DNA of 64,000 bases, from assembly GCA_041874725.1 (NCBI GenBank), contig CP097466.1, positions 3,782,001 through 3,846,000 of the forward strand. Direction: 5' to 3'. The notes below the pieces were generated by a model. It was not told the DNA's origin. It saw only the letters and a program-made list of their open reading frames with translations, and ran no database searches. Numbering within the stretch: the first letter of the stretch is position 1; every line of letters begins with the position of its first letter. Below are positions 1-47,287 of this stretch, one piece after another. Made by a program: the position numbers and the translations under genes. Source of the stretch: Duganella sp. BuS-21 (lineage in GTDB: Bacteria; Pseudomonadota; Gammaproteobacteria; Burkholderiales; Burkholderiaceae_D).

Positions 1-78
1 GATCACTTGCAGACCTTTTTCCAAGCCGCCGACCAGGTCGCGCGGCGCGGGCATAATGGGTTGGTCTTCGGTATCCAT
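1..78 (-). CDS. IclR-family regulator, N-terminal fragment (PcaR/PcaU-like)
   Basis: Only the first 26 codons lie in the window; the gene runs off its left edge. The peptide contains DLVGGLEKGLQVI, the usual beginning of the IclR-family winged-helix domain as in PcaR, PcaU and PobR regulators. It is transcribed divergently from pcaH with a 144-nt gap holding a PcaR-like operator, so its likely role is to control the pca operon in response to beta-ketoadipate or protocatechuate. Family assignment rests on very little sequence. Confidence 0.6.
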   Translation of the reverse strand, partial: MDTEDQPIMPAPRDLVGGLEKGLQVI

Positions 79-95
79 GCCAAATAAATGTGGTT

Positions 96-124
96 TTGTG
101 CGATATGCGCACAATGTGTGCGAG
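96..124. promoter_or_regulatory. PcaR/PcaU-like operator between the IclR gene and pcaH
   Basis: Positions 96-114 form an inverted repeat with 7-bp arms, TTGTGCG and CGCACAA, around ATATG. A further GTGTGCGAG repeat follows directly to position 124. The core GTGCGATATGCGCAC resembles the Pseudomonas PcaR box (GTTCGATAATCGCAC), matching 12 of 15 positions by eye. Palindrome plus third repeat is the layout known for PcaU/PobR-type IclR operators. Confidence 0.6.
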
Positions 125-222
125 TAGCGAATATAGCACGCAGCCGGCATCTTGTCTGCTGGGCGGCGGCTTCGTACCATGATCAAAGCAGGCATTTAGC
201 TAATAATCAGAGGAGACTAGCT

Positions 223-915
223 GTGAAATTCGACGCCATCGCCCCCGGTGTGTACCCGGAACTGGTTTATCCACCCTATAAATCGACCGCCCATCGCGGT
301 CCGCGCCAGCCGCTGCTGCGCCTCGATGCGCCGGTGCCGGTATCGCAAAACATCGCGCCTTCGCAGCGCATCCTGCTGCCCAACGACGCCGACCTGACCG
401 TCCATGGCGACAGCGCGCCGCTGGGCGAGAAAATCGTCGTCACCGGCCGCGTGGTCGACGAAGACGGTAAGCCCGTGCGCAATTCGCTGGTGGAAGTCTG
501 GCAGTGCAACGCCGCCGGCCGCTATCGCCACAAGAAGGACCAGCACGACGCGCCGCTCGATCCCAACTTCAACGGCTGGGGCAAGATGATGACCGACGAC
601 GACGGCCGCTATCGCCTCGTCACCATCAAGCCCGGCCCCTACCCTTGGGGCAATCATGAAAAGGCCTGGCGCCCGGCGCACATCCACTTCTCGCTGTTCG
701 GAAATGTGTACGCGCAGCGCCTGGTGACGCAGATGTACTTTCCCGGCGATCCGCTGTTCGACTACGATCCGATCTTCCAGAGCATTCCCGATCTGACCGC
801 GCGCGATCGCCTGATCTCGCGCTTCAGCCTTGAGCAAACCGTGAGCGACCAGATGCTGGGCTATGAGTTCGACATCGTCCTGCGCGGCCGCGACGCCACG
901 CCTTTCGGCATCTGA
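223..915 (+). CDS. pcaH: Protocatechuate 3,4-dioxygenase beta subunit
   Basis: Catalytic subunit of the intradiol ring-cleaving dioxygenase that converts protocatechuate to 3-carboxy-cis,cis-muconate. At 230 residues it has the family's usual length. The non-haem iron site is visible: Tyr in GPYPW and the two His of RPAHIHFS. The start is taken as GTG at 223 because AGGAGA lies at 211-216 and the protein then begins KFDAIAPGVYPELVYPP as in other PcaH; the ATG at 88 would add a stretch unlike PcaH. It is the first gene of pcaH-G-B-CD, which is probably induced through the operator at 96-124. Confidence 0.93.
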   Translation: MKFDAIAPGVYPELVYPPYKSTAHRGPRQPLLRLDAPVPVSQNIAPSQRILLPNDADLTVHGDSAPLGEKIVVTGRVVDEDGKPVRNSLVEVWQCNAAGRYRHKKDQHDAPLDPNFNGWGKMMTDDDGRYRLVTIKPGPYPWGNHEKAWRPAHIHFSLFGNVYAQRLVTQMYFPGDPLFDYDPIFQSIPDLTARDRLISRFSLEQTVSDQMLGYEFDIVLRGRDATPFGI

Positions 916-925
916 GGAGACACGC

Positions 926-1423
926 ATGAGCAATATCACTACTTCGCAAACCATCGGCCCGTTCTCGCACGAAGCGTGGAAGTGGGCCACCGACTTGAAC
1001 ACCGCCGCCGGCGCCATCACCATCAGCGGCATCATCTACGACGGCGCCGGTGTGCCGATCAACGACGCCCAGCTTGAATCGTGGCAGCCCGCCGCCGATG
1101 CCGAGTCGGCGCAGCAGATTCCCGGCTTCCGCCGTGTGCCCAGCGGCGAGGACGGCGGCTTCCGCTTCCAGCTATCGAAGTGCGAGCAGGCGCCGGGCGA
1201 GCCGCTGGCCTACATCACCGTCTTCGCGCGCGGCCTGGTGAAGCACCAATTCACCGCCGTGTTCCTGGCCGACGACGCCGGCCTGTCGCAGTCCGCTATA
1301 CTGGACCAGGTGCCCTCGGCACGCCGCGCCACGCTGCTGGCCGAGCGCAACGCCGACGGCAGCTACCGCTGGGACATCCACATGCAGGGCGAACGCGAGA
1401 CCGTATTCTTCGACTATGAGTAA
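926..1423 (+). CDS. pcaG: Protocatechuate 3,4-dioxygenase alpha subunit
   Basis: Structural partner of PcaH in the cytoplasmic dioxygenase complex. The N-terminus has the typical TSQTIGPFSHEAWKW segment, followed by the intradiol dioxygenase fold. At 165 residues it is shorter than many PcaG (about 200), mostly through a shorter central region. The alpha chain does not carry the iron ligands. It starts 10 nt after pcaH behind TGAGGAGA, which decides the ATG at 926 over the in-frame ATG at 863 inside pcaH. Confidence 0.9.
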   Translation: MSNITTSQTIGPFSHEAWKWATDLNTAAGAITISGIIYDGAGVPINDAQLESWQPAADAESAQQIPGFRRVPSGEDGGFRFQLSKCEQAPGEPLAYITVFARGLVKHQFTAVFLADDAGLSQSAILDQVPSARRATLLAERNADGSYRWDIHMQGERETVFFDYE

Positions 1424-1432
1424 CCAGGATAT

Positions 1433-2644
1433 ATGAGCGTATCGATTTTCGACAGCTTCCTCACCAGCAGCGACATGATTGCGGTATTCGACGATGCCGC
1501 GATCATGCAGTCCATGCTGCGCTTTGAGCAGGCGCTGGCACAGGCGCAGGCCGATGTCGGCCTGCTGCCGCAAACCACGGCGCAAACCATCGCCGACGCC
1601 TGCGACGTGCAGCGCTACGACGTGCAGGCGCTCATCCTCGCCAGTCGCCGCGCCGGCAGTCTCGCTATCCCATTGGTGAAAGCGCTGAAAGACACCGTGG
1701 CCGCCAGCGACAAGCCGGCTGCCGCCAAGGTCCATTTCGGCGGCACCAGCCAGGACGTGATCGACACCGCCATGGTGCTGGCCACGCGCGCAGCCGTACA
1801 ATTGCTCGACGACGGCCTGCACGACCTCACCGGCCGCCTGCTGCAACTGGCGGAGCAGCACGTCGCCACGCCGGTGCTGGCGCGCACGCTGATGCAGCCG
1901 GCGCAAATCACCTCGCTGGGCTTCAAGATGGCCGCCTGGCTGGCGCCGCTGGTCCGCGCACGCGCGCGCCTGCGCGTAGCGGCCGCGCGCGCGCTGCAAT
2001 TGCAGCTCGGCGGCGCGGTCGGCACGCTCGATGTCATGGGCGAACGAGGGCCGGCCGTGGCCGAGCGCATGGCCGCCATCCTCGGCCTGCGCGCGCCGGC
2101 CGCCGCCTGGCACACGCAACGTGACGAGTGGGTGCGCCTCGGCCTGGAAGTGGCGCTGTTGTCCGGCAGCCTGGGCAAGGTCGCCACGGACTTGAGCTTG
2201 ATGGCGCAAGGCGAAATCGCCGAACTGGCGGAACCGTCCGGCGACGGCCGTGGCGGTTCGTCGGCCATGGCGCACAAACGCAATCCCGTATCGTCGATGA
2301 TCGCGCTGGCCGCCGCCGCGCGCACACCGCAGCACGCCGCCGCGCTGTTGGCGGCGATGGGCCAGCAGCATGAACGTGGTCTGGGCAACTGGCAGGCGGA
2401 GTTGGCGGAATGGCCGTCGCTGTTCCTCAGCGCCCACGGCTCCTTATCCGCGCTGAACGAAGCTTTCGCCGGCCTGCAGGTCGATAGCGCACGCATGCTG
2501 CGCAACATCGGCGACTTCAAGGAACTGATGTATCCAGGCGCCGAACAGGATGCGGCGCAACTCGCCTTGCCCGCCCAGCGCCTGGCCGAACAACAACTGC
2601 GCCAACTGGGCGCGGACATCACCGATCTCTCGACACCAACATGA
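1433..2644 (+). CDS. pcaB: 3-carboxy-cis,cis-muconate cycloisomerase
   Basis: Converts 3-carboxy-cis,cis-muconate to 4-carboxymuconolactone, the second step from protocatechuate. It belongs to the fumarase/aspartase superfamily: the signature loop GGSSAMAHKRNPVSS lies near residue 275, and FGGTSQDVIDTAMVL near residue 100 is the conserved substrate-site segment. At 403 residues it is slightly shorter than many PcaB (about 450). It begins 9 nt after pcaG, and its stop overlaps the next start as ATGA, indicating translational coupling. Confidence 0.92.
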   Translation: MSVSIFDSFLTSSDMIAVFDDAAIMQSMLRFEQALAQAQADVGLLPQTTAQTIADACDVQRYDVQALILASRRAGSLAIPLVKALKDTVAASDKPAAAKVHFGGTSQDVIDTAMVLATRAAVQLLDDGLHDLTGRLLQLAEQHVATPVLARTLMQPAQITSLGFKMAAWLAPLVRARARLRVAAARALQLQLGGAVGTLDVMGERGPAVAERMAAILGLRAPAAAWHTQRDEWVRLGLEVALLSGSLGKVATDLSLMAQGEIAELAEPSGDGRGGSSAMAHKRNPVSSMIALAAAARTPQHAAALLAAMGQQHERGLGNWQAELAEWPSLFLSAHGSLSALNEAFAGLQVDSARMLRNIGDFKELMYPGAEQDAAQLALPAQRLAEQQLRQLGADITDLSTPT

Positions 2645-3903
2645 GCTACGATCCCATCGACCACGATTTCGAACGCGGCTTGCACAACCGCCGCACCATC
2701 CTCGGCGACGCCTGGGTGGAGCGTTCGCTGAACAACGCCAACAACTTCAATGCCGAATTCCAGAACCTGATCACACGTTTTGCGTGGAATGAGATCTGGG
2801 GCCGGCCGGGTCTGGAGCAAAAGACCCGCCGCGCCATCGTCCTGTCCATCACCATCGCGCTGGGACGCTGGGAAGAATACGACCTGCACGTGCGCGCCGC
2901 GCTGCTGGGCGAAGACAGCAACCGCCTGACGCCGGACGAATTAAAGGAAGTGCTGATTCAGTCAGCCATCTACGCCGGCGTGCCTGCTGCGAATACGGCG
3001 TTCACTCACGCGCTGGCGATCCTGCGCGAAGTCGGTCCGCAGATCGGCTACGAGCTGGAGCCGCTGGCGCCGGGCGCCACCGCGCATCCGGGGATCGGCC
3101 GCGAAGGCCGCACGGCCAGCCTGCCGGCGCTACACTACAGCGTGCGCGAGCCGCGCAACGGCAAGACGCCGCGCCGCACCGTGGTGTTGAGCCACGCGCT
3201 GGGCTGCGATTTGACCATGTGGGATCAACTGGCCAATCTGCTGTCCGAAGACAGCCGCGTCATCGCCTACGACCATCGCGGGCATGGCAGCTCGGACGCG
3301 CCTGCCGGTCCCTACGCCATGGCCGATCTGGCCGACGACGCCGCACGTCTGCTGCGCGAGCTGGATTCGGGGCCCGTTACGTGGATAGGTTTATCGATGG
3401 GCGGCATGGTGGGACAGGAGCTGGCGCTGCGCCACCCGTCGCTGGTGTCGGCACTGGTGCTGGCCAATACCACGTCGTCCTATCCGTCGGCGGCACAGGC
3501 GATGTGGGAGCAGCGCATCGCAACCGTGCGTGAAGGCGGCATCGTAGCGATTGCCGAGGCGGTGATGGGGCGCTACTTCCACGAAGGCTTCCGCAACGAG
3601 AAGCGCGCCACGGTGGAACGCTTCCGCCGCCGGCTGATAAGCACCGACATGGAAGGCTATGTGGCCTGCTGCGCGGCGGTAAGTGGGGTCAACACGACTG
3701 CGCGCCTGCCGGGCATCGGCGTACCGGTGCTGGTGATCGCGGGCGAGCTGGATGCGGGCACGCCGCCGGCGATGGCAGAAGAACTGGCGAAACAACTGCC
3801 ACGCGCACAACTGCGGGTGATACCTCAAGCCTCCCACATCAGCGCCGTCGAACAACCGTCGGAGTTTGCGGGGCTGGTGTTGGGGTTTTTAGCGCAGACC
3901 TGA
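2641..3903 (+). CDS. Fused 4-carboxymuconolactone decarboxylase / 3-oxoadipate enol-lactonase, PcaC-PcaD order
   Basis: One 420-residue protein carries two consecutive pathway steps. Residues 1 to about 130 are the PcaC decarboxylase (AhpD-like CMD fold; NNANNFNAEFQNLITRFAWNEIW). Residues from about 145 are an alpha/beta hydrolase of PcaD type: SHALGCDLTMWDQLA, DHRGHGSSDAP, nucleophile elbow GLSMGGMVGQ, acid in GELDAGTP and His in QASHISAVEQP. The product is 3-oxoadipate. The known actinobacterial fusion PcaL has PcaD first and PcaC second; here the order is reversed. The ORF is continuous across the junction. It overlaps pcaB by 4 nt and ends the operon. Confidence 0.9.
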   Translation: MSYDPIDHDFERGLHNRRTILGDAWVERSLNNANNFNAEFQNLITRFAWNEIWGRPGLEQKTRRAIVLSITIALGRWEEYDLHVRAALLGEDSNRLTPDELKEVLIQSAIYAGVPAANTAFTHALAILREVGPQIGYELEPLAPGATAHPGIGREGRTASLPALHYSVREPRNGKTPRRTVVLSHALGCDLTMWDQLANLLSEDSRVIAYDHRGHGSSDAPAGPYAMADLADDAARLLRELDSGPVTWIGLSMGGMVGQELALRHPSLVSALVLANTTSSYPSAAQAMWEQRIATVREGGIVAIAEAVMGRYFHEGFRNEKRATVERFRRRLISTDMEGYVACCAAVSGVNTTARLPGIGVPVLVIAGELDAGTPPAMAEELAKQLPRAQLRVIPQASHISAVEQPSEFAGLVLGFLAQT

Positions 3904-4053: not shown

Positions 4054-6193
<2,140 letters not shown>

Positions 6194-6197
<4 letters not shown>

Positions 6198-8718: not shown

Positions 8719-9975
8719 TTAATCTACCGCAGGTAGCCTGCGGATATACAGCCAGCCCAGGGCGGTGGTGAATGTCACCGCCAAAGTCAATGTGATGAAC
8801 AGCGTGGATGGACCGCTCTGGATCAGATACGGCGTGCCAAGTGCGCAGACGGCAGCCAGCATGCGGGTAAAGAAGGTGGCCGCGCCTTGCGCGGTCGAGC
8901 GCAGCAAGGTCGGGAACAGCTCCTGGCTCCACACCTTCCACATCGACTCACCGGCGAACGCACCGCCCACGCCTTGCAGGATCTGCCATGCAGCCAACGA
9001 CACCACGTTCACGCCGAAAACCACCGGTACAATCTGCCCGGCGATCACCAGCAGGCCGCCCAGCAGGAACCATGTCATGCGCGACGGCAGGTCCACGGTG
9101 CGCATGAACAGCACCGCGCAACAGAAGGAGATCCCGAACTGCACAGTGTTGATCATGCCGGCCACAGATACCGAGGTTTGCGCCAGTTCGGTATATAGCA
9201 AGGTGCCAAACTGGCCGCCGGTATTTGCCGCCAGATTGAACACGCCATAGAACAGCGACAGCGCGATGAATGGGCCGATGTAGCGCCGGCTGAACAGCTG
9301 CTTGAGTCCTTCCGTCGCCGGCGCGCCGTCGCCTTCGTGCGCACTGTTGCGGCGCGCGTTCGCCCTGGTCCACTCCTGGGATTCCGGCAACGTAGAGCGC
9401 AGCGCCAGCACCAGCAAGGTCACCAGCAGGATGTGCGCCCACATGATGCGGCCACCGGTCACGCCCATCTCGCCTACAAGTACCTGCATGACGAAGGCGG
9501 CGCAGATGGCGGCCATCCACAGCACATGCGAGAAGGCGATGAGCCTCCCCTTGTAGCCGGGCGGCGCTTCTTCCGCGATCATCGCCATGGAGACCGGCAG
9601 GTCGGCGCCGATGCAGAAGCCTACCACTGCTGTCCCCGCGTACAGCATTGCCACGCTGGGCGCGAAAGTCAGCATCGCAGTACCGGCGGCCAGGCCGATC
9701 ATGGTGACGGTGAAGACCTTGCGCCGGCCGTAGCGGTCGCCGAGCCGGCCGCCGACCAGCGCGCCAATGGCGAACAGGCCGGTGAGCACGGCGGACAATT
9801 GACCGATCTGCGTCAGCGTCAGGCCGAAGTATTCCTTGTACAGCACCAGCGCGCCGCCGCTGGTGATGATGGCGCCGGCATCCAGATAAGATGCCATGCC
9901 GGCCAAAATGGCCACGCGCCAGGCGGAGCGCGGCAGTTCGCTGAGCCGCGTTTCCGTGATCGTTACGTCTTTCAT
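8719..9975 (-). CDS. MFS sugar/metabolite transporter
   Basis: 418-residue inner-membrane carrier with about 12 hydrophobic segments. The MFS loop motif GGRLGDRYGRRKVF lies between segments 2 and 3, and PPGYKGRLIAF is the sugar-porter-like loop after segment 4. Its start overlaps the stop of the rhamnosidase gene (9972-9975), so the two are coupled. Context suggests uptake of rhamnose or of an intact rhamnosyl-saccharide: the rhamnosidase has no export signal, so its substrate must enter the cytoplasm. Substrate is inferred, not seen. Confidence 0.85.
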   Translation of the reverse strand: MKDVTITETRLSELPRSAWRVAILAGMASYLDAGAIITSGGALVLYKEYFGLTLTQIGQLSAVLTGLFAIGALVGGRLGDRYGRRKVFTVTMIGLAAGTAMLTFAPSVAMLYAGTAVVGFCIGADLPVSMAMIAEEAPPGYKGRLIAFSHVLWMAAICAAFVMQVLVGEMGVTGGRIMWAHILLVTLLVLALRSTLPESQEWTRANARRNSAHEGDGAPATEGLKQLFSRRYIGPFIALSLFYGVFNLAANTGGQFGTLLYTELAQTSVSVAGMINTVQFGISFCCAVLFMRTVDLPSRMTWFLLGGLLVIAGQIVPVVFGVNVVSLAAWQILQGVGGAFAGESMWKVWSQELFPTLLRSTAQGAATFFTRMLAAVCALGTPYLIQSGPSTLFITLTLAVTFTTALGWLYIRRLPAVD

Positions 9976-12415: not shown

Positions 12416-12440
12416 TGCTGTCTCCTCCTTGCTCTGGTCA

Positions 12441-12480
12441 TTATTAATGTTTGTTAATGCAATATACCGATTCATTAACA
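12441..12480. promoter_or_regulatory. Candidate DeoR operator upstream of the DeoR gene
   Basis: TGTTAATG (12452-12459) and CATTAACA (12473-12480) form a perfect inverted repeat with a 13-nt spacer; a further TTAATGTT copy lies at about 12444-12451. The same CATTAACA...GTTAAT motif occurs upstream of the rhamnose-locus TonB receptor at 21656-21672. Shared operators would couple both units to one repressor, probably the DeoR protein encoded here. Confidence 0.5.
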
Positions 12481-12507
12481 TCACGTAAACGTATTAATAC
12501 GAAAGAA

Positions 12508-26994: not shown

Positions 26995-27018
26995 TCTGTC
27001 TCCTGTTTTTTAGTATGT

Positions 27019-27064: not shown

Positions 27065-27122
27065 ATAAGACGCTGGCGCAAACTGCAACCTCCAACTACA
27101 AAAAATATTGATGGAGACGTGA

Positions 27123-28766: not shown

Positions 28767-28776
28767 GGAGACAAGA

Positions 28777-34750: not shown

Positions 34751-34768
34751 ACCAAACAAGGAACATAC

Positions 34769-35716: not shown

Positions 35717-35725
35717 GGAGCGGCC

Positions 35726-36064
35726 ATGCCGGCATCCACCTTCCTGTGCCGCCTGGCCGAGCTGCCCGACGGTGAAGCACGCGGCTTCGATCCCGCGCAC
35801 AGCGGGCAAGACAGCCTGTTCGTGGTGCGTCAGGGCGGCCGGCTGCTGGCTTACCGCGACCAGTGCCCACACTACGGCGACACGCCGATGGCCTGGCGCC
35901 GCCACGCTTACCTCAACGCTGACGGCAGCCGCATCGTCTGCGCCGCGCACGGCGCGCTGTTCCGCATCGAGGATGGCGTCTGCCTGCAAGGCCCGTGCCT
36001 TGGCGAGGCGCTGATCCCGGTGCCGATCACCATCAACGGTGACGGCGAAGTACACCTCATGTAG
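35726..36064 (+). CDS. Rieske [2Fe-2S] ferredoxin
   Basis: 112-residue soluble Rieske protein with both cluster motifs, CPHYGDTP (about residues 46-53) and CAAHGALF (about 72-79). The spacing is longer than in most Rieske ferredoxins because of WRRHAYLNADGSRIV. It follows the dioxygenase gene by 9 nt. Such ferredoxins can keep extradiol iron reduced or feed electrons to an oxygenase. No oxygenase large subunit is in this operon; the VanA-like protein at 45240-46274 has its own reductase. Confidence 0.88.
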   Translation: MPASTFLCRLAELPDGEARGFDPAHSGQDSLFVVRQGGRLLAYRDQCPHYGDTPMAWRRHAYLNADGSRIVCAAHGALFRIEDGVCLQGPCLGEALIPVPITINGDGEVHLM

Positions 36065-36093
36065 GTCCGAACAAACAAGCAACGGAGACGAAA

Positions 36094-37224: not shown

Positions 37225-37241
37225 GTGCCGGGAACCCCGCC

Positions 37242-38441: not shown

Positions 38442-39016
38442 GTTTTCCTCCCATCCACCGCGTCGTCACCGGCCATGACGCCGCCGGCAAGGCTGTCGTC
38501 ACCTCGGACGGCGCGCTGCCCACGGTGATCGAACTGGCGGCCATCCCCGGGACGGTATTTCACGAGGTGTGGAGCACCGGCGCCACGCCGGCGCGTGTCG
38601 ACAACGGCGCCGATCCGAGCACCGGGCCGCTGGTGTTGCCGCCGCCGGCACACGGCACGCGCATCCGCTTTGTCGACATCCCGCCCGATACGGCAGACTA
38701 TCTCGCACACGGCGCCGCCCGCATGCAAGAAGCCTTCAGTGAAATCGGCGACAGCGCCGCGTCCACCGTAAAGGCCGATTCGCCGCACCCGCTGATGCAC
38801 CGCACCGAGTCGGTGGACTACGGCATCGTCATCGAGGGCGAGCTGACATTGGTGCTGGACGATTCCGAGGTGCAGCTCAAGCCGGGCAGCGTGGTGATCC
38901 AGCGCGGCACCAACCATGCCTGGGCCAACCGCTCCCAAGCGCCGTGCCGCATGCTGTTCGTGCTGATCGACGGCGCTTACGATCCAGCCATCGCCGCTGC
39001 CCTGGACCAAGCATGA
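38438..39016 (+). CDS. Cupin-domain protein
   Basis: 192 residues with one conserved cupin barrel in the C-terminal half: HPLMHRTESVDYGIVIEGEL, LTLVLDDSEVQLKPGSVVIQ and RGTNHAWANRS. Its likely metal ligands are His and Glu in the first motif and His in the second. It is possibly an isomerase, decarboxylase or dioxygenase acting on a pathway acid; the exact step is unknown. Coupled by ATGA overlaps to the MFS gene before it and the SDR gene after it. Confidence 0.8.
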   Translation: MSFPPIHRVVTGHDAAGKAVVTSDGALPTVIELAAIPGTVFHEVWSTGATPARVDNGADPSTGPLVLPPPAHGTRIRFVDIPPDTADYLAHGAARMQEAFSEIGDSAASTVKADSPHPLMHRTESVDYGIVIEGELTLVLDDSEVQLKPGSVVIQRGTNHAWANRSQAPCRMLFVLIDGAYDPAIAAALDQA

Positions 39017-39789
39017 CGCCGCCCCTGTTCGATCTGCGCGACCGCATCGTGCTGCTGACCGGCGCGGCCGGCGGCCTGGGCGTGGCGATCGCGCAGGCGA
39101 TGGCGGCGCACGGCGCCACCCTGCTGCTGTCCGACCACAACGCCGACGACTGCGAAGCATTGGCGCGCTCGCTGCGCACACACGGCCATCAGGCGCATGC
39201 ACTGCCTTGCGACCTGTCGCAACCGCGCCAGGTGCAACAGCTGGCCGCATCGGCGCTGCAGCAGCACGGCCGTATCGACGTCTTGATCTGCAACGCCGGC
39301 ATACAAGGGCCGGCCGGGCCGCTGCACGCGATCGATGCGCAACAATGGGATGCGGTCATGGACATCAACCTGCGCAGCGCCGCCACGCTGTGCGGCTTGC
39401 TGCTGCCGGCCATGGCGGAATGCGGCGGCGGCAGCGCTATCCTGATGTCCAGCATCGCCGGCCTGCGCGGCAACAAGGCGATCGGTGTATATGGATTATC
39501 GAAGGCGGCGCTGGCGCAGCTGGCGCGCAATCTGGCGGTCGAATGGGGGCCGCACAATGTGCGGGTCAACGCCATCGCACCGGGATTGATCCGCACGCCG
39601 CTGGCGGCCGGCCTGCTGGCCGACGACGCCTTCATGGCGCGCCGCTTGGCGCAAACGCCGCTGCGACGGCCCGGCGAACCGCACGAAATCGCCGGCGTGG
39701 CCGTCATGCTGGCGAGTGTCGCCGGCGCTTTCATCACCGGCCAGACGCTGGTGGTCGACGGCGGCACCACCATCAGCGACGGCAATTAA
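39013..39789 (+). CDS. Short-chain dehydrogenase/reductase
   Basis: 258 residues, classical SDR. Cofactor motif RIVLLTGAAGGLGVAIAQAM, structural NAG in LICNAGIQGPAG, catalytic Ser in ILMSSIAGLRG, catalytic YGLSKAALA, and the C-terminal GQTLVVDGGTTISDGN. The adenine-site residue after beta-2 (SDHNAD) suggests NAD(H). It probably oxidises or reduces a hydroxyl or keto group of a ring-cleavage intermediate. Substrate is not evident. Confidence 0.87.
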   Translation: MTPPLFDLRDRIVLLTGAAGGLGVAIAQAMAAHGATLLLSDHNADDCEALARSLRTHGHQAHALPCDLSQPRQVQQLAASALQQHGRIDVLICNAGIQGPAGPLHAIDAQQWDAVMDINLRSAATLCGLLLPAMAECGGGSAILMSSIAGLRGNKAIGVYGLSKAALAQLARNLAVEWGPHNVRVNAIAPGLIRTPLAAGLLADDAFMARRLAQTPLRRPGEPHEIAGVAVMLASVAGAFITGQTLVVDGGTTISDGN

Positions 39790-39811
39790 ACATACGAAGC
39801 AAAGGAACATC

Positions 39812-40792
39812 ATGAAATTTGCCACTCTCAAAGATCAAACACCCGATGGACGCCTGCTGGTCGTCTCCCGCGACCTGGCGCGCTGCGTGGATGCCAGCGC
39901 CATCGCGCCATCCCTGCTGCACGCAGTCCAGCACTGGGCGAAGGTGGAAGCCCCTCTGCGCCAGCTTTCCGATAGCCTGAACAGCGGCGCGACCGCCGGC
40001 CAGCCCTTTGACCCGCAGCGTTGCAGCGCGCCGCTGCCGCGCAGCCCGCAGTGGTGCGATGGCTCGGCCTTCCTCAACCACGCCAAGCTGATGGAGCAGG
40101 CGTTCAAGACGCCGCCGATTCCCGACCTTGAAAGCATCCCGCTCATGTACCAGGGCGCCAGCGACGATTTCCTCGGCCCGCACGACGACGTAGCGCTGCC
40201 CAGCGAAACCGACGGCATCGATTTCGAAGGTGAATTCGGCGTGGTTCTGGACCACGTGGCGATGCGCAGCACGCCGCAGGACGCGCTCAAACAAGTGCGC
40301 CTGCTGGTGCAGCTGAACGACTGGAGCCTGCGCGCCATGGGTCCACGCGAAATGCGCACCGGCTTCGGCTTTTTACAAGCCAAGCCGTCCACCAGCTTCG
40401 CCCCGGTGGCCGTCACGCCGGATGAACTGGGCGACGCCTGGCGCGACGGCCGCGTGCATCTGGAACTGCACGTGGAATGGAACGGCGCGCACTTCGGCCA
40501 CCCGCATGGCGGCCAGATGAGCTTCGGCTTCGGCGGCCTGATTGCCCACGCCGCACGCACACGGCGGCTGACGGCTGGCACCATTATCGGCACCGGCACG
40601 GTATCGAACAGCAGCCGCGCCGTGGGCTCCGCCTGCATCGCCGAGCGGCGCGTGATCGAGATGATCGACCACGGCGAGGCGCGCACCGGCTTCATGCGCT
40701 TCGGTGACCGTGTGCGCATGCAAGCGCGCTTGCCGGGCCAGGACACCGGTCCGTTCGGCGTGATCGACCAGCACGTGGTGGCGGCGCCTTGA
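39812..40792 (+). CDS. Fumarylacetoacetate hydrolase-family protein
   Basis: 326 residues. The C-terminal FAH domain shows the metal-site stretch DGIDFEGEFGVVLDHVAM (Glu, Glu, Asp side chains) and the QLNDWSLRAM and FGFLQAKPSTSFAPVAVTP segments typical of the larger FAH members. These enzymes hydrolyse C-C bonds in diketo acids, fitting a late step after ring cleavage. The start is ATG at 39812 behind AAAGGAAC; an in-frame extension overlapping the SDR gene is spurious. It overlaps the next gene by 4 nt. Confidence 0.88.
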   Translation: MKFATLKDQTPDGRLLVVSRDLARCVDASAIAPSLLHAVQHWAKVEAPLRQLSDSLNSGATAGQPFDPQRCSAPLPRSPQWCDGSAFLNHAKLMEQAFKTPPIPDLESIPLMYQGASDDFLGPHDDVALPSETDGIDFEGEFGVVLDHVAMRSTPQDALKQVRLLVQLNDWSLRAMGPREMRTGFGFLQAKPSTSFAPVAVTPDELGDAWRDGRVHLELHVEWNGAHFGHPHGGQMSFGFGGLIAHAARTRRLTAGTIIGTGTVSNSSRAVGSACIAERRVIEMIDHGEARTGFMRFGDRVRMQARLPGQDTGPFGVIDQHVVAAP

Positions 40793-41739
40793 GTCATATC
40801 GTCATCACCGGCGCCAACGGCTTTGTCGGCCGCGCCCTGGTCAAGCGCCTGCTGGCGCAAACGCGCCATACGTTGACGCTGATCGACCATTCCTTCGATG
40901 ACACTGGTGCCGATCCACGCGCGCGGCGCATCGCCGGCTCGTTCGGTGATCCGACCGTGCTCGATGCGGCGCTGGAGACGCCGGCCGATGTCGTGTTCCA
41001 TCTGGCCAGCGTGCCCGGTGCGCTGGCCGAGCGCGAGCCGGCACTCGGGTACCAAGTCAACCTGCTGGCGACACTGACCTTGGCGCATCGGCTGGCGCAG
41101 CAGCAGGAGCAGCAGCAACGCAAGGCACGGCTGGTGTTCGCCAGCTCGGTGGCGGTGTACGGCGCCCTCGACCCCGGTGATGTGCACGAGAACCAGGAGG
41201 CCCGCCCCGCCCTCAGCTACGGCGCGCACAAGCTGATGGCAGAAATCGAACTGGCGGACCTGAGCCGACGCGGCCAGCTCGACGCGGTGAGCCTGCGCCT
41301 TCCAGGCATCGTCGCCCGGCCGCCGTCGGAGTCCGGCCACGGCTCGGCCTTCATGAGCCTCGTGATGCACAAGCTTGCCGCCGGCCAGCACTATGTGTGC
41401 CCGGTCGGCCCCAAAGCAACCGCATGGTGGATGTCGCTGCCGTGCTGTATCGACAATCTGCTGCATGGCGCCACCATGTCGACAGCCGGCGCGCCGCCGG
41501 CGCGCGTATGGCAGCTGCCAGTGCTGCACCTGAGCTTACGCGATGTGCTTGATGCGCTGGCATGGCGTTATGGTCCGCAGCGGCGCGAGCTGCTCACCTT
41601 CGCGCCGGACGAACGGCTGGAAACACTGTTTGGTCGCTTGCCTCCGCTGCACACGCCAGCAGCACTGGCTGCGGGCTTCCGCCACGACAAGGATGCCGAC
41701 AGCCTGATCGCAGCAGCCATGCAAGGCAGCCTGGGATAA
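40789..41739 (+). CDS. NAD-dependent epimerase/dehydratase, DenD-like
   Basis: 316-residue extended SDR with IVITGANGFVGRALVKRLL at the N-terminus and catalytic YGAHKLMAE. LRLPGIVARPPSESGHGSAF and the C-terminal layout resemble D-erythronate dehydrogenase (DenD) and related enzymes. It begins at TTG 40789, which overlaps the FAH stop (TTGA), and closes the operon. Its step in the pathway is not clear; a hydroxy-acid dehydrogenase role is plausible. Confidence 0.78.
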   Translation: MSHIVITGANGFVGRALVKRLLAQTRHTLTLIDHSFDDTGADPRARRIAGSFGDPTVLDAALETPADVVFHLASVPGALAEREPALGYQVNLLATLTLAHRLAQQQEQQQRKARLVFASSVAVYGALDPGDVHENQEARPALSYGAHKLMAEIELADLSRRGQLDAVSLRLPGIVARPPSESGHGSAFMSLVMHKLAAGQHYVCPVGPKATAWWMSLPCCIDNLLHGATMSTAGAPPARVWQLPVLHLSLRDVLDALAWRYGPQRRELLTFAPDERLETLFGRLPPLHTPAALAAGFRHDKDADSLIAAAMQGSLG

Positions 41740-42037: not shown

Positions 42038-44146
42038 TTAATCCCACACCGTCAGCCTGTCCTTCGGCACCGTCAATCTCACCTGACGGCTTTCTCCCGC
42101 CTTCAGCGACAGCTTTTGCCAGGCCACCAGGCGCTGTGGCGGTTGTCCCACAGCCGAAGGCAGACTCGCATAGACCTGCACCACTTCCGCACCGCTGCGC
42201 GGGCCCGAGTTTTTCAGTGTGACCGATACGCTGACATCCCCATTCGTAGTCTTGGCGACGTTGAGCGATGAATAGCTGAACGAGGTGTACGACAAACCGT
42301 GGCCGAAGGCGAACAACGGCGCCACCTTGTTGGCATCGAACCAACGATAGCCGATCTTCAATCCCTCGCTATAGTCGACCGTGTCGCCAGCGGCGATCAC
42401 GGGCTGCGGCAGATCCTGGTCGCGCCGGGGAAAACTGAGCGGCAGCTTGCCGGAAGGGTTGACGTCGCCGAACAAGACATCGGCGATAGCCTGCCCACCG
42501 CGCACGCCCGGATACCATGCGGCCAGCACTGCGGGCACGGCGTCCAGCCAAGGCATCAGCACCGCAGTGCCGCTTTCCAGCACCACCACCGTGGATGTAT
42601 TCTTCGCGGCCACCGCAACGATCAGCGCATTCTGGTCGTAGGCCTGGTTGGCGGCATCGTCGTTGTTGGACGGTAGACTCAGCGACGCCAGATCCATGGC
42701 TTCGCTGGTGAACTGCGTGGCAAAGACGATCGCCACATCGGCCTTGGCGGCGGCGTTGGCCGCTGCTGCGACATCGGCACCCGAATAGAAGGTGACGTTT
42801 GCTCCAGGCGCCTTGGCGCGTATCGCCGCCAGCGGCGAGGACTTGAAGTATGGTGCGCAGCGCGAGAACAAGCCGAAAGGATCAAAGAAGGTATCGGGTT
42901 TCAGGCAAGCGACGGGATTACCCTCCTGCGGCTGGATGGAGCCGGAGCCACCGCCATGCATGACCCCAACATCGGCATGACCACCGATGACGACGATCGA
43001 GCGCACCTTGCGGTTGATCGGCAGCGGCGATGCGCGCTTGCCTGCAAGGGCAGCGTTCTTCAATAGCACCATGCTGTGCGCGGCCACCGTTTGCGCCACC
43101 GCCTCGCCTGCGGCGCGGTCGATCTTTCCACCGGCGACCGGGGGCGCATCCATAATGCCTAGCTTGTACAGCGTGCGCAGCTTGCGGAACACCATGTCAT
43201 CGAGCCTGGATGCCGGCACGGCGCCGCTCAATACGGCCGCCTTCAGCTTTTGATTGAAATGGGTCGGCGGCATGCCATGCGTGCTTTCGTAGTCGTTCTG
43301 CGATCCCGGCTGCTCTTCGTCAAGGCCGGCATTGGCGCCACGCACGGTATCGGTCAGCGCGACCACCCAGTCGGACTGCACCCAGCCCTTGAAGCCCCAG
43401 TCGGTCTTCAGCGTATCGCCGATCAGCGCCTTGTTTTCACAAGCTTTGGCGCCGTTGACCAGATTGTAGGCGCACATGACGATGCCCGGCTCCGCATCGC
43501 GCACCGTCATCTCGAAAGGCAGGAGATACAGCTCACGCAGCGCCTTTTCCGAAATCACCGAATTCGAGGCGTAACGATTGGTCTCCTGCTCATTGCCGGC
43601 GAAATGCTTGGCGGTGGATACCACTTTCTGCGCTTGCGTGCCGCGCGTGCGCGCAGTCAGGATGGCGCCGGCCAACACCGGGTCCTCGCCCATGTATTCA
43701 AACGTGCGGCCATTGCGCGGCTCGCGCGCCAGGTTGACGCCGGTCCCGAGCGACACGGCAAAACCAAGCGCCCGCACCTCCTTGCCGATGGCGACACCAA
43801 GGTCGGTGGCCAGCACAGTATCCCAACTGGCAGCCACCGCGAGCGGCGATGGAAACGCCGTGGCGCCGGTGACGCCGGCATTTACCCCGCTACCGGAGTC
43901 GGTCATATTCAGCGCCGGAATGCCAAGCCGCGCAATGCCCGGTATGTAACCACCGCCGCCCAAGGGTGAGGTACCGAGTCCGGCGCCGTGCACCATCTGG
44001 ATTTTTTCATCAAGGGTGAGCTGGGCCAGCACGCCGCGGGCGCGCGCGTCGGCCAGGGTGTCCTGGTCGGCGTCGGCAGCGCGGGTGGCGGCGTGCTGCG
44101 ACAACACGCTCAGTGTGACGGCGAGCGCAAGGATTCTCTTCTTCAT
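42038..44146 (-). CDS. GH3 beta-glucosidase, C-terminally truncated by a nonsense codon
   Basis: 702 residues. Signal peptide (RILALAVTLSVLSQHAATRA), GH3 barrel domain with nucleophile Asp in GWVQSDWVVALTDTV (about residue 265), alpha/beta sandwich (KADVAIVFATQFTSEAMD, LPLSFPRRDQDLPQPV) and a FnIII-like domain that stops early at LTVWD. It lacks the PA14 insert of the first GH3. The frame continues 32 codons past the stop. Activity may survive, since the active site lies upstream, but folding or secretion could suffer. Ribosome site GGAGGAGACACCC. It lies between the fde-like operon and the VanAB-like pair, so a flavonoid glucoside is a plausible substrate. Confidence 0.85.
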   Translation of the reverse strand: MKKRILALAVTLSVLSQHAATRAADADQDTLADARARGVLAQLTLDEKIQMVHGAGLGTSPLGGGGYIPGIARLGIPALNMTDSGSGVNAGVTGATAFPSPLAVAASWDTVLATDLGVAIGKEVRALGFAVSLGTGVNLAREPRNGRTFEYMGEDPVLAGAILTARTRGTQAQKVVSTAKHFAGNEQETNRYASNSVISEKALRELYLLPFEMTVRDAEPGIVMCAYNLVNGAKACENKALIGDTLKTDWGFKGWVQSDWVVALTDTVRGANAGLDEEQPGSQNDYESTHGMPPTHFNQKLKAAVLSGAVPASRLDDMVFRKLRTLYKLGIMDAPPVAGGKIDRAAGEAVAQTVAAHSMVLLKNAALAGKRASPLPINRKVRSIVVIGGHADVGVMHGGGSGSIQPQEGNPVACLKPDTFFDPFGLFSRCAPYFKSSPLAAIRAKAPGANVTFYSGADVAAAANAAAKADVAIVFATQFTSEAMDLASLSLPSNNDDAANQAYDQNALIVAVAAKNTSTVVVLESGTAVLMPWLDAVPAVLAAWYPGVRGGQAIADVLFGDVNPSGKLPLSFPRRDQDLPQPVIAAGDTVDYSEGLKIGYRWFDANKVAPLFAFGHGLSYTSFSYSSLNVAKTTNGDVSVSVTLKNSGPRSGAEVVQVYASLPSAVGQPPQRLVAWQKLSLKAGESRQVRLTVPKDRLTVWD

Positions 44147-44290: not shown

Positions 44291-45235
44291 CTACAAGTCC
44301 AACACCAGCACCGCAGTCCTGGCCCGCGAGACACAGGGCATGAAACAATCATTGGCCTGCCGTTCGGACGCGGACAGGAAAGCGTCGCGATGATCCGGCA
44401 CGCCGGCCAGCACCCCGGTGCGGCAGGTACCGCAGACTCCCACCTCGCAAGAGCAATCGATGTCGATGCCGGCATCCTGAAGGCAGGCCAGCGCGCTTTG
44501 TCCCGCCGATACCGGAAGCTCGCGCTGCGAGCGCGCCAGTCGCAGCACAAACGCCGCTTCCTTGTCGCTGTCGATTGCCGCCGGAGAGAACGATTCCTGA
44601 TGCACGGCCGCAGCACCGAACCGCGCGCTACCGGCAGCCGTCACGGCAGACATGAATGGCGCCGGCCCGCACACATAGACCTGCGTGCCGTCCGCAGGAG
44701 CCGCCCCCATCGCTGCTGCCAGACTGGCCGCGACCTGTGCCGCGTCCTGACCTGCATGCATTACGACCTGCGACGCCAGCGGACCGGATTGCAGTTCGTC
44801 TGCAAATGCCATGCCGGCGGTATCGCGCACGAAGTACATCAACTGGAACGAGGCCCCGCGCCGCAGCAACGCATACGCCATCGACAGGATGGGCGTGATG
44901 CCGATGCCGCCGGCGAATAGCAGGTAGTGCCCGGCCGCCGGCGTCAGAGCGAACGCATTGCGCGGCTGGCCCAGGCCGAGGCGCGTCCCCACATGCGCCA
45001 CCTCGTGCAACCACGCCGAGCCGCCACGCGACTGCGGCTCGCGCTTGACGGCAAGCCGATACGCAGCGGACGGCGCGCGGCAGCATAAGGAATACTGGCG
45101 CACCAGACCATTGCCCAGCGTGACATCAATATGCGCACCTGCCTCGTAGGGCGGCAGCGGCGTGCCATCGACGGCGGCCAGTTCCAGCAGGCGGACGTCG
45201 CCGCTATCGCGAATCGACTGAATCACAACGTCCAT
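44291..45235 (-). CDS. Oxygenase reductase (VanB-like, FMN/NAD and plant-type ferredoxin domains)
   Basis: 314 residues in the phthalate dioxygenase reductase order: flavin domain (RQYSLCC, about residues 45-52), NAD domain (LLFAGGIGITPILSMA, YVCGPAPFMSAV) and C-terminal [2Fe-2S] domain with CSCEVGVCGTCRTGV plus a distal Cys (DCFMPCVSRA). It passes electrons to the Rieske oxygenase encoded 4 nt upstream. Start 45235 gives MDVVIQSIRD; the longer in-frame ORF overlaps the oxygenase gene. Confidence 0.92.
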   Translation of the reverse strand: MDVVIQSIRDSGDVRLLELAAVDGTPLPPYEAGAHIDVTLGNGLVRQYSLCCRAPSAAYRLAVKREPQSRGGSAWLHEVAHVGTRLGLGQPRNAFALTPAAGHYLLFAGGIGITPILSMAYALLRRGASFQLMYFVRDTAGMAFADELQSGPLASQVVMHAGQDAAQVAASLAAAMGAAPADGTQVYVCGPAPFMSAVTAAGSARFGAAAVHQESFSPAAIDSDKEAAFVLRLARSQRELPVSAGQSALACLQDAGIDIDCSCEVGVCGTCRTGVLAGVPDHRDAFLSASERQANDCFMPCVSRARTAVLVLDL

Positions 45236-45239
45236 GCGC

Positions 45240-46274
45240 CTATTCCGCCGTCGCCGCTGTCTGCGCCGCCACGTGTGCAGCGACGATGCGGCGCGCCCGG
45301 TTGGCGCCCGCGTCCACATGGATATCTACCATCGGCCCGCCGCCATAGCGCTGGATGTTGTTGTACTGCCTCTCGATCAGCACCCGGTCTTCTTCGAAAG
45401 TCTGTTCCGTCTGGCGATACACGATATCCGCGTTGCCCGGCTGCTCTGGATGCTCGGAGCTGGCCATGGTCCAGAAGTAGTGCGTGGTGGTGTCCGTCTC
45501 CGGCGTAATGCCGTGGAAACCGCGCATGTGGAAGCCGCCGCGCTGCGGATCGTCCAGTGCATCGGTGTCCGGCTCCACCGCGCCGGTGAATATCTGCAGA
45601 TAGGTCAGATGAAAATCGATCTCCTGCCAACGGTCGATGCGGCCCTTGAATGGCCAGGCCGCCGCGTAGGTGGCGGGAGGCTGTGAATTTTTCATCCAGC
45701 GCACCACGCGCACCTTGTCGCCGTCCTGCGTGACGATGGTCGGCGCCTCCATGTGTACCTTGGCGTTGCCGCCGATGGTGCGGCCGTGCAGATAGCCGAC
45801 ATGGCTCAGGTCCAGCAGGTTATCGTGGATCAGCTGATACGGCGCCTGGTAGTGGAAGGCACCGCCCTTCCATGTATAGCGCGGATCCTCGTGCGCCGGC
45901 ACCTCCGGCGGCGCACAGTCGGGCTGCGCATCGGCGTCGCGGCCGAACCAGATCCAGATCACCTGATTGCGGATCTGCGCCGGATACGCGCGCACCTTGG
46001 CCTTGCCCGGAATCTTGACCTGCCCCGGCACCTCGATGCACTGGCCGCTGGCGGCGAATTTCAAGCCGTGATAGCCGCAACGGATGCCGCCATCCTCCAG
46101 CGTGCCGCAGGATAGCGGCACCGCGCGGTGGCAGCAACGGTCCTCCAGCGCGGCCACGCCGCCATCGCTGGTGGAGAACATCACCACCGGCTGGTTGAGC
46201 AGCACGCGCGCCAGCGGCTGCTCGTGCAGCTCCCACGCAAAGCCGGCCACATACCATTGATTTAACGGGAACAT
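45240..46274 (-). CDS. Rieske aromatic oxygenase (VanA-like O-demethylase)
   Basis: 344 residues. The N-terminal Rieske domain contains the pair CCHRAVPLSCG and CGYHGLKF. The catalytic domain has the mononuclear iron motif DNLLDLSHVGYLHGRT with two His. Length and pairing with a VanB-type reductase match vanillate O-demethylase and its relatives. It could remove methyl groups from methoxylated phenolics such as vanillate or from O-methylated flavonoids. The substrate is not determined by sequence. It is divergent from a LysR gene. Confidence 0.88.
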   Translation of the reverse strand: MFPLNQWYVAGFAWELHEQPLARVLLNQPVVMFSTSDGGVAALEDRCCHRAVPLSCGTLEDGGIRCGYHGLKFAASGQCIEVPGQVKIPGKAKVRAYPAQIRNQVIWIWFGRDADAQPDCAPPEVPAHEDPRYTWKGGAFHYQAPYQLIHDNLLDLSHVGYLHGRTIGGNAKVHMEAPTIVTQDGDKVRVVRWMKNSQPPATYAAAWPFKGRIDRWQEIDFHLTYLQIFTGAVEPDTDALDDPQRGGFHMRGFHGITPETDTTTHYFWTMASSEHPEQPGNADIVYRQTEQTFEEDRVLIERQYNNIQRYGGGPMVDIHVDAGANRARRIVAAHVAAQTAATAE

Positions 46275-46295
46275 ATCGGTCTCCTTTTGAATTGA

Positions 46296-46370
46296 TTTGA
46301 AATATCATCGCGGAGCACGCCGTATTTTCAAATAGAATGAACCGCATAACATTTATACGAATTTCAAATA
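46296..46370. promoter_or_regulatory. Repeated TTTGAAAT/ATTTCAAAT half-sites in the LysR-oxygenase promoter
   Basis: TTTGAAATATC at 46296-46306, GTATTTTCAAATA at 46322-46334 and CGAATTTCAAATAC around 46359-46371 repeat one motif three times across the 107-nt divergent gap. The last two carry the same orientation and the first is inverted. Spacing suits a LysR regulator with recognition and activation sites. Confidence 0.5.
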
Positions 46371-46381
46371 CGGAGACTAGC

Positions 46382-47287
46382 ATGGCCGGATTCGACCTGA
46401 ACCTGCTGCCGGTGGCGCTGGCCATTTACGAGGAGAGCAGCGTCAGCGGCGCGGCGCGCAAGCTGGGCATGAGCCAGCCGGCAGTCAGCGTGGCCCTCAA
46501 CAAGCTGCGCAAGGCACTCGGCGACCCGCTGTTCGTACGCACCGTGCACGGCATGGCGCCGACGCCGCGCGCCCTGACCTTGATCGATCCCACGCGCGAC
46601 ATCCTGCAGCGCCTGCGCAACGACGTGCTGGCCAGCGAGCACTTCGACCCATGCACCACTGACCGCCGATTCACCATCGCCCTGTCCGATATCGGCGAGA
46701 TGACCTTTCTGCCGCGCCTGCTGGACCGGCTGCGGCGCGAAGCGCCCGGCGCCAGCATCAGCTCCGCCACGCTGCCGCCGGCCGAGCTGGTGCTGGCGCT
46801 GGAACAGGGCAGTGTCGACCTGGCGGTGGGTTACTTCCCGGACCTGAAGCACCGCAACCTGTTCCAGCAGCGCCTGTTCTCGCACTCCTTCATCTGCCTG
46901 CTCAGCGCGAATCATCCCTACCGACAAAAGAAACTCAGCATGAAGCAATTCCTGGAGATGGGCCATGCGGTGGTCAAGGCCGAGGGACGCAGCCAGGAAT
47001 TGTTCGAACAATTCCTGGTCAAGCAGCAGATCACACGACGCGTGGTGCTGTCGACGCCCCACTTCATGTCGATACCGTTCGTGATCGCCGCCAGCGACCT
47101 GGTGGCAACGGTGCCGCGTGCCGTGGGCGAAAGTTTCACCAGGTTGGCCGAGATCCGTCTGGTGGAGCCGCCGGTGACCATCCCCAGCTTCGATCTCAAA
47201 CAGCACTGGCACCGCAAATACGCCAAGGACGGCGCCAACGCCTGGCTGCGCGGCCTGATCGCCCAGATATTCAGCGACGCGCAATAA
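46382..47287 (+). CDS. LysR-family regulator divergent from the Rieske oxygenase
   Basis: 301 residues. N-terminal helix-turn-helix FDLNLLPVALAIYEESSVSG, AARKLGMSQPAVSVALNKLR; C-terminal effector domain with FTIALSDIGEMTFLPRLL. It is of the NodD/LinR/DntR type. ATG 46382 follows GGAGACTAGC, preferred over upstream in-frame starts. Its likely target is the oxygenase/reductase operon and possibly the downstream GH3. Confidence 0.88.
   Translation: MAGFDLNLLPVALAIYEESSVSGAARKLGMSQPAVSVALNKLRKALGDPLFVRTVHGMAPTPRALTLIDPTRDILQRLRNDVLASEHFDPCTTDRRFTIALSDIGEMTFLPRLLDRLRREAPGASISSATLPPAELVLALEQGSVDLAVGYFPDLKHRNLFQQRLFSHSFICLLSANHPYRQKKLSMKQFLEMGHAVVKAEGRSQELFEQFLVKQQITRRVVLSTPHFMSIPFVIAASDLVATVPRAVGESFTRLAEIRLVEPPVTIPSFDLKQHWHRKYAKDGANAWLRGLIAQIFSDAQ

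What the first reader, a model, noticed from the sequence alone, without database searches (positions are those of the whole stretch)
1..47287. Candidate catabolic island for flavonoid rhamnoglucosides
The window joins rhamnoside release and rhamnose catabolism (9972-21584), two GH3 glucosidases, a NodD-like regulator with an fde-like ring-cleavage operon (25193-41739), a VanAB-like demethylase pair and the PobA/Pca pathway. These correspond to successive parts of molecules such as rutin, naringin or hesperidin: rhamnose, glucose, A-ring, methoxyl, B-ring. The individual families are seen in sequence; the fde link is known from Herbaspirillum; the joint function is inference.
Basis: partly seen in the sequence, partly recalled or inferred. 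Interest (0 to 1): 0.9.

Follow-up and report, generated by a model that had tools for sequence, protein, structure and literature searches.

The report
Flavonoid rhamnoside breakdown gene locus
A soil bacterium of the genus Duganella appears to carry, side by side, genes to strip sugars (notably rhamnose) off plant flavonoids and genes to break the remaining flavonoid rings, and the same unusual pairing recurs in several other bacteria, so it is probably one working system.

Summary
In detail: rhamnosidase, rhamnose catabolism, two GH3 enzymes, a NodD-like LysR with a full fde-type operon, a VanA/VanB-like pair and PobA/Pca are present. (1) The rhamnosidase is a rare short GH78 related to KoRha, which cleaves rutin. 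Of 50 named FdeE-positive genomes tested, 4 carry this short GH78; in all 4 it lies 13-35 kb from fdeE on the same contig, with homologues of the same MFS, TonB receptor and VanA-like gene (GH3a in 3), in four gene orders. (2) On an FdeE tree these loci do not cluster. (3) pca/pob are flanking backbone: a congener lacks the stretch 6198-50651. (5) Just beyond the window lies a C-glycoside deglycosidase cluster with a second FdeC; such genes also sit beside fde in 4 of 80 named loci. I read this as an fde core with exchangeable deglycosylation front ends. Against: most fde loci have no rhamnoside module nearby. All function is inferred; nothing was measured.

The parts
88..3903 (+). pcaH-pcaG-pcaB-pcaCD, protocatechuate branch; flanking backbone, would receive the B-ring product
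   Evidence: 84-93% protein identity in G166 and Duganella sp. CF402
4054..5223 (-). pobA, 4-hydroxybenzoate 3-monooxygenase; flank
   Evidence: NF006091 605 bits (cut-off 351), but TIGR02360 518 bits is below its cut-off 538.7
5337..6197 (+). AraC-type regulator, pobR-like by position; last backbone gene before the variable segment
6194..8695 (-). GH3a with PA14 domain and a signal peptide (judged by eye); exported beta-glucosidase or diglycosidase
   Evidence: best solved relative by sequence 4i3g
8719..9975 (-). MFS permease of the rhamnoside module
   Evidence: 65-82% identical in the four linked genomes
9972..11621 (-). short GH78 alpha-L-rhamnosidase, no signal peptide seen; KoRha-type
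11633..12484 (-). DeoR-type regulator
12880..14016 (-). FMN L-lactate dehydrogenase type; end of the rhamnose branch
   Evidence: NF008398 over its cut-off; LldD exception model under its cut-off
14029..15399 (-). FGGY kinase, probable rhamnulokinase by position
15405..16694 (-). L-rhamnose isomerase RhaI
   Evidence: TIGR02629 above cut-off
16704..18791 (-). RhaD bifunctional rhamnulose-1-phosphate aldolase/short-chain dehydrogenase
   Evidence: TIGR02632 and NF006189 above cut-off
18861..21584 (-). TonB-dependent receptor of the rhamnoside module
   Evidence: 60-84% identical in the four linked genomes
21782..25176 (+). response regulator, 2CSK_N histidine kinase, sugar-type solute-binding protein: likely sensor of the rhamnoside module
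   Evidence: G019: beside a TonB receptor and GH78; D. guangzhouensis, P. umbonata; absent from the stretches of BJB404 and R. koreensis
25193..26035 (-). cyclase-family protein (PF04199); sits inside the fde gene run in other genomes
   Evidence: in 59 of 80 named fdeE loci
26086..26994 (-). FdeR-like (NodD-like) LysR regulator
27014..27068 (+). conserved nod-box-like element in the fdeR-DUF1302 gap
27123..33574 (+). DUF1302 - DUF1329 - YCF48-like - RND/MMPL envelope module, in the place of the MetA-type gene of Herbaspirillum
33590..37224 (+). fdeB (S9/FrsA-like hydrolase), fdeC (extradiol-type glyoxalase fold), fdeD (Rieske ferredoxin), fdeE (flavin monooxygenase)
37227..41739 (+). MFS, cupin, SDR, FAA hydrolase, epimerase: rest of the fde operon
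42038..44146 (-). GH3b, with a signal peptide (judged by eye)
44291..46274 (-). ferredoxin-type reductase and VanA_C Rieske oxygenase: probable aromatic O-demethylase pair
   Evidence: best solved relative DdmC, dicamba O-demethylase
46337..47287 (+). LysR divergent from the demethylase; 74-78% identical homologue next to a VanA-like gene in five other genomes
   Evidence: G129, G252; D. guangzhouensis, BJB404, P. umbonata

Best explanation
A catabolic locus for flavonoid rhamnoglycosides. Shown: gene families, their recurrence together in separate lineages, key GH78 residues. Read from the sequence by eye: signal peptides on both GH3 enzymes and none on GH78. Inferred: the solute-binding protein and two-component system sense the glycoside or its sugar; the TonB receptor brings the glycoside through the outer membrane; exported GH3a frees the aglycone (as a diglycosidase on rutinosides or neohesperidosides, or as a plain glucosidase on flavonols with separate glucose and rhamnose); the MFS brings the rhamnosyl sugar or flavonoid rhamnoside in; cytoplasmic GH78 frees L-rhamnose; RhaI, kinase, RhaD and the lactate dehydrogenase take it to dihydroxyacetone phosphate and pyruvate. 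FdeR, through a nod-box-like site, turns on the fde operon; FdeED hydroxylates C8, FdeC opens the A ring, the other Fde enzymes shorten it; the VanA/VanB-like pair removes an O-methyl group from the B ring or the acid derived from it; PobA and Pca finish the B ring. In other genomes the fde core is combined with other front ends (C-glycoside deglycosidase).
For: Families. Placed at random each would be that near with chance 0.4-0.9%, product 2e-9; this is optimistic because shared ancestry and the choice after the fact are ignored. Among 51 FdeE rows (window plus the 50 tested loci) the five loci with the module need 4 gains or losses of the label, all 4 forced by supported branches; so the pairing was built, or kept while others lost it, more than once. 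RhaD is present in all 4 genomes (18 of 50 overall). The window GH78 has the KoRha residues Asp222, Asp229, Tyr284, Glu486, Tyr498, His508 at the aligned places; KoRha frees rhamnose from rutin (passages of PMC4690510). H. seropedicae FdeE acts on flavanones, flavones, isoflavones and flavonols, in line with 5,7-dihydroxyls (passages of PMC11303751). Conserved nod-box-like element. C-glycoside genes beside fde.
Against: Most fde loci have no rhamnoside module: GH78, GH3a, TonB receptor and RhaD in 0 of 80 named loci within the 10 kb or less held on each side. 46 of the 50 tested genomes lack the short GH78. RhaD is near fdeE in no other of the 21 family genomes with an FdeE hit. The nod-box-like site occurs once in the window, before the fde operon, so no shared regulation with the rhamnoside module was found. 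G019 has sensor, TonB receptor and GH78 but is not among the fdeE-positive genomes listed, so the module can exist without fde. Exported GH3 with cytoplasmic GH78 is awkward for a rutinoside unless GH3a is a diglycosidase, which was not tested. No expression or enzyme data.
Confidence: 0.78

Rival explanations
1. Two independent functions lie side by side at a gene-exchange hot spot: a rhamnoside or pectin-oligosaccharide utilisation module and a flavonoid-aglycone module, with no shared substrate.
For: In this genus the site pobR - AraC has different contents in three genomes; 0 of 80 fde loci have GH78 within 10 kb; G019 has GH78-TonB-sensor in a genome not listed with fdeE; no nod-box-like site before the rhamnoside module.
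Against: 4 of 4 tested FdeE-positive genomes with the short GH78 have it within 35 kb of fdeE, in different orders and in two families; C-glycoside deglycosidase genes also sit at fde loci.
Confidence: 0.15
2. The locus is for rhamnosides of other plant phenolics (phenylethanoid, lignan or stilbene glycosides), with fde-like enzymes of shifted specificity.
For: FdeE here is 63-89% identical to the 80 named relatives, none of them known by me to be assayed; IfcA, a distant kin, is specific for isoflavones (PMC11069340 passages).
Against: The fde genes are present and conserved as a set; the characterised FdeE and RgF8H acted only on flavonoids among the tested substrates (PMC11303751 passages).
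Confidence: 0.06
3. The VanA/VanB-like pair is an unrelated methoxybenzoate demethylase that is near by chance.
For: Homologues 67-74% identical lie about 4 kb from another VanA-type gene and far from fde, or on another contig, in G129, G252 and G281.
Against: A VanA-type gene lies within 10 kb of fdeE in 15 of 80 named loci, at 59-71% identity to the window gene in 5 of them, and in all four GH78-linked loci. How often VanA-type genes lie near random loci was not measured.
Confidence: 0.25

Closest known systems
fde operon of Herbaspirillum seropedicae SmR1 (naringenin degradation, Marin et al. 2013, 2016; recalled, and seen cited in passages of PMC11303751, PMC11069340 and PMC8552027)
   Same: FdeR-like LysR, fdeB-fdeC-fdeD-fdeE, MFS, cyclase, cupin, FAA hydrolase, epimerase; H. 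huttiense is 42-82% identical gene by gene
   Different: The MetA-type outer-membrane gene of H. huttiense is replaced by DUF1302/DUF1329/YCF48/RND, an SDR is added, and deglycosylation modules are attached. The SmR1 sequences themselves were not at hand.
KoRha, GH78 of Klebsiella oxytoca (PDB 4xhc; passages of PMC4690510)
   Same: short two-domain GH78, catalytic and rhamnose-binding residues kept
   Different: I know of no ring-cleavage locus around KoRha (not searched)
ifc isoflavone cluster of Variovorax (passages of PMC11069340)
   Same: A-ring 8-hydroxylation and cleavage by an FdeC-type enzyme (66% identical to FdeC in that paper)
   Different: isoflavone-specific monooxygenase, 36% identical to FdeE in that paper; IfcA did not accept isoflavone glycosides
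C-glycoside deglycosidases DgpBC, CarBC, PurBC (passages of PMC8563793, PMC12724307)
   Same: PF19906 beta subunit with TIM-barrel partners and GMC or Gfo/Idh/MocA oxidoreductases in the neighbouring cluster
   Different: the passages describe deglycosylation; here the genes adjoin fde ring-cleavage genes

Membership tests
fde-type flavonoid A-ring meta-cleavage locus | FdeE, FdeD, FdeC, FdeB together under a NodD-like LysR | tested here: met
fde-type flavonoid A-ring meta-cleavage locus | nod-box-like operator before the operon | tested here: inconclusive
   AATCAATTTTACACATA is identical in 10 of 10 aligned gaps. It resembles the nod-box core, but that core is recalled and differs at 2 places; the pattern was loosened after seeing the site (1 match, 0.09 expected). 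A matrix from nine of the gaps found a weak match before the fde genes of H. huttiense.
fde-type flavonoid A-ring meta-cleavage locus | MetA-type outer-membrane FdeA | tested here: not met
   present in H. huttiense; in its place DUF1302/DUF1329/YCF48/RND here
fde-type flavonoid A-ring meta-cleavage locus | 8-hydroxylation of naringenin | not testable with these tools
   needs enzyme assay
GH78 alpha-L-rhamnosidase, KoRha type | catalytic acid and base and rhamnose-binding residues | tested here: met
   six of six residues named in the passages are identical at the aligned places; the chain numbering was matched by hand (offset 20)
GH78 alpha-L-rhamnosidase, KoRha type | rutin hydrolysis | not testable with these tools
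   shown for KoRha only (PMC4690510)
RhaI-kinase-RhaD rhamnose pathway | equivalog matches for isomerase and aldolase | tested here: met
   the kinase has only Pfam FGGY matches
VanA/VanB vanillate O-demethylase | VanA_C Rieske oxygenase with a Fer2/NAD reductase | tested here: met
VanA/VanB vanillate O-demethylase | identity to a proven vanillate demethylase | tested here: inconclusive
   35% to the other VanA-type copy of this genome; I take such copies, found near pobA in relatives, for the classical VanA, but did not test that
mobile genomic island | integrase, flanking repeats, deviant G+C | tested here: not met
   no integrase among the 50 window proteins scanned, no shared 12-mer in 300 bases at each end, G+C 63.6-66.0% by block
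mobile genomic island | absence from the same site in a congener | tested here: met
   G166 has 1.33 kb there, a Gfo/Idh/MocA gene that may be a deletion remnant

The most novel reading that the evidence does not exclude
Bacterial flavonoid-glycoside catabolism is modular: one conserved A-ring-cleaving core (fde) is repeatedly combined with exchangeable deglycosylation cassettes, at least an O-rhamnoglycoside cassette (TonB receptor, MFS, GH78, GH3, often a sensor and a VanA-like demethylase) and a C-glycoside deglycosidase cassette, here with its own FdeC, so the cassettes beside fde predict which plant glycosides a soil bacterium can mineralise. In this Duganella both lie within about 100 kb.
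Probability: 0.5. Interest if true: 0.75.

Novelty: new variant of a known kind. Interest (0 to 1): 0.64.

Why it matters
Many plant flavonoids reach soil as glycosides (general knowledge), yet the characterised fde and ifc pathways start from aglycones. A locus that joins sugar removal, uptake, sensing and ring cleavage gives a direct genetic handle on how flavonoid signals and defence compounds are destroyed around roots, and yields candidate rutinosidase, rhamnosidase, O-demethylase and C-deglycosidase enzymes whose context already names a likely substrate class.

Tried and rejected
Rejected: tRNA-Ser at 13312-13391 as an integration site, since it lies inside the lactate dehydrogenase gene. 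Rejected: pca/pob as part of the variable segment. Rejected: RhaD as the marker of the association; the short GH78 is the better marker, chosen after seeing the data. Tried without result: a nod-box-like site elsewhere in the window or in L076, terminal repeats, papers on Duganella with rutin and naringin (0 papers), papers joining C-glycoside and fde terms (3 in the listing; of these only PMC11069340 was looked at, in passages). The isovanillate demethylase paper (Providenti 2006) is not held, so I could not test whether the VanA-like gene is IvaA. Alignment A1 held two rows read on the wrong strand and was dropped for A2. The label count compared the linked loci only with five other labelled rows; it is replaced, which sets them against all 46 other tested loci. 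The comparison groups for the GH78 counts differ in collection and threshold, so the Fisher values (0.0023 for 4 of 50 against 1 of 273; 1e-11 for 12 of 50 against 1 of 398) are rough and do not allow for kinship. Only 50 of the 80 named loci were given; the 30 left out are mainly metagenome bins, further Herbaspirillum, and second loci of genomes already in. For G682 one GH78 contig (C34) was not fetched.
Full report
WHAT IS THERE. The window is G000:C1:3782001-3846000 of a 6.49 Mb single-contig genome. Its genus (g1) also holds G120, whose fde contig has the length (29,495) of Duganella phyllosphaerae NZ_LROM01000079, so I call it Duganella.

THE FDE CORE. The cyclase at 25193, which here lies across fdeR, is inside the gene run in Herbaspirillum and others and is in 59 of 80 named loci. 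H. huttiense has a MetA-type outer-membrane gene before fdeB, the probable FdeA; here DUF1302, DUF1329, YCF48-like and RND genes stand instead, as in 43-47 of 80 loci. Letter names beyond B-E follow gene order and are inference. The gap between fdeR and DUF1302 holds AATCAATTTTACACATA, identical in 10 of 10 gaps aligned. It resembles the nod-box core (recalled, 2 differences); with a pattern loosened to fit, it occurs once in the window, 0.09 expected at up to 3 mismatches.

THE RHAMNOSIDE MODULE. GH78 starts at 11621 and shows no signal peptide; GH3a starts at 8695 and shows one; the orthologues agree (GH3a 3 of 3, GH78 4 of 4; by eye and hydropathy). GH3b shows one too. The best solved relative of GH78 is KoRha, 4xhc, E 5e-136. 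The six residues named in passages of PMC4690510 are identical at the aligned places.

THE ASSOCIATION. The FdeE alignment A2 found 80 named loci (159 candidates, best 80 kept). Within the 10 kb or less held on each side, 0 of 80 have GH78, GH3a, TonB receptor or RhaD homologues; one has the sensor genes (L120), one has lldD-rhaB-deoR-rhaI (L110), one more has rhaB (L160). Widening this: of 50 of these genomes, 12 have a PF17389 GH78, against 2 of 399 genomes of the order (this genome included). Four of the 12 are of the short type (63-79% identical to the window gene) and all four lie on the contig of fdeE. The other eight are 22-27% identical or not matched by the window GH78; seven lie on other contigs by length (for G682 one of its two GH78 contigs was not checked) and that of CF402 lies 2.3 Mb away. 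The four: D. guangzhouensis GH3a-MFS-GH78-DeoR-TonB, sensor, LysR, VanAB-like, fde, cyclase, fdeR in one run; BJB404 fde, lldD-rhaB-deoR-rhaI-rhaD, LysR, VanAB-like, GH3b, TonB, GH78, MFS; R. koreensis fde, VanBA-like, rhaB-rhaI-rhaD, MFS, TonB, GH78, GH3a; P. umbonata sensor, deoR, TonB, GH78, MFS, GH3a, then 24 kb, VanBA-like, LysR, fde. On a tree of 51 FdeE rows (window plus the 50 tested loci) the five loci with the module need four gains or losses of the label, all four forced by supported branches; losses cannot be told from gains. Module and core also differ in nearest kin: among the six compared genomes GH78 is closest in D. guangzhouensis and P. umbonata (79%), FdeE in D. flavida and CF402 (88-89%), which have no such GH78. 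RhaD is in all four genomes and in 18 of 50 overall.

THE SITE. Against the congener G166 the window aligns at 1-6197 and at 50652-61047, with nothing in between at that place; part of the DUF1302-RND block matches elsewhere on that contig. G166 has 1.33 kb in the gap, a Gfo/Idh/MocA gene of the C-glycoside cluster. In Duganella sp. CF402 the same site holds the C-glycoside cluster followed by cyclase-fdeR-fde and then the AraC gene. So pca/pob and the phytase side are backbone and the middle is variable. Whether G166 is an empty site or a deletion is open. No integrase, terminal repeats or odd G+C were found. FdeC homologues are on 24 of 72,556 plasmid records, 8 of them typed conjugative, so fde-type genes do travel; GH78 homologues on 17 plasmid records are all under 60% identical.

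C-GLYCOSIDE CLUSTER. Beyond the window (3852-3886 kb of the genome) lie a second FdeC (81% identical), TonB receptors, a PF19906 C-glycoside deglycosidase beta subunit between TIM-barrel proteins, a GMC oxidoreductase with a Gluconate_2-dh3 protein, GH1, GH43, GH3 and a NodD-like LysR. Homologues of the alpha-type and beta subunits lie within 10 kb of fdeE in 4 of 80 named loci: L117, L119, L128 and L130.

FATE OF THE B RING. PobA and Pca could finish 4-hydroxybenzoate. pobA homologues also lie within about 10 kb of fde genes in G115 (52% identical) and G143, and pca genes in L119 and L128. The VanA-like gene is 35% identical to the other VanA-type copy of this genome and recurs by fde loci. 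A role on the methoxyl of hesperetin-type flavonoids or on isovanillate is my guess.

NOVELTY. fde (aglycone), GH78 and C-deglycosidases are each known. By title and abstract start, my library searches listed no paper that joins glycoside removal with fde; for only the first 15 of 30 and 10 of 841 papers were listed, and subscription journals are mostly not held. I file it as a new variant of a known kind.

Noticed in passing
G000 3852375-3886199 (L055:6375-7298, L076, L077:1-10199): C-glycoside deglycosidase cluster with a second FdeC (81% identical) and NodD-like LysR, about 6 kb past the window end; in Duganella sp. CF402 the same cluster directly precedes the fde operon.
   Followed up: partly
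47532-50093: 853-aa protein with a T6SS Hcp domain (384-497) and Big_9/cadherin repeats, an odd combination inside the variable segment; 0 of 80 fde loci have it within 10 kb.
   Followed up: no
52858-57056: TonB receptor followed by a 544-aa phytase; conserved backbone in G166 and CF402.
   Followed up: partly
L056:15669-20000 (G000 about 3645669-3650000): Second rhaI-rhaD-deoR set in the same genome; rhaI and rhaD 68-69% identical to the window copies.
   Followed up: partly
13312-13391: ARAGORN tRNA-Ser call inside the lactate dehydrogenase gene; probably false.
   Followed up: no
L096:1-10342 (G019:C10): Short contig with sensor, TonB receptor and GH78 in a genome not listed with fdeE: the rhamnoside module apparently without fde.
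   Followed up: partly
L084-L085 (G173:C2:1050001-1090000): Three FdeE (40, 51, 65%) and two FdeC (33, 67%) homologues in one 40-kb stretch, with DUF1302/1329/RND: possibly further flavonoid or isoflavone routes.
   Followed up: no
plasmid records (e.g. NZ_CP126319.1, NZ_CP024940.1): FdeC homologues (up to 78% identical) on large plasmids of Burkholderia, Paraburkholderia, Bradyrhizobium, Roseomonas and others.
   Followed up: no
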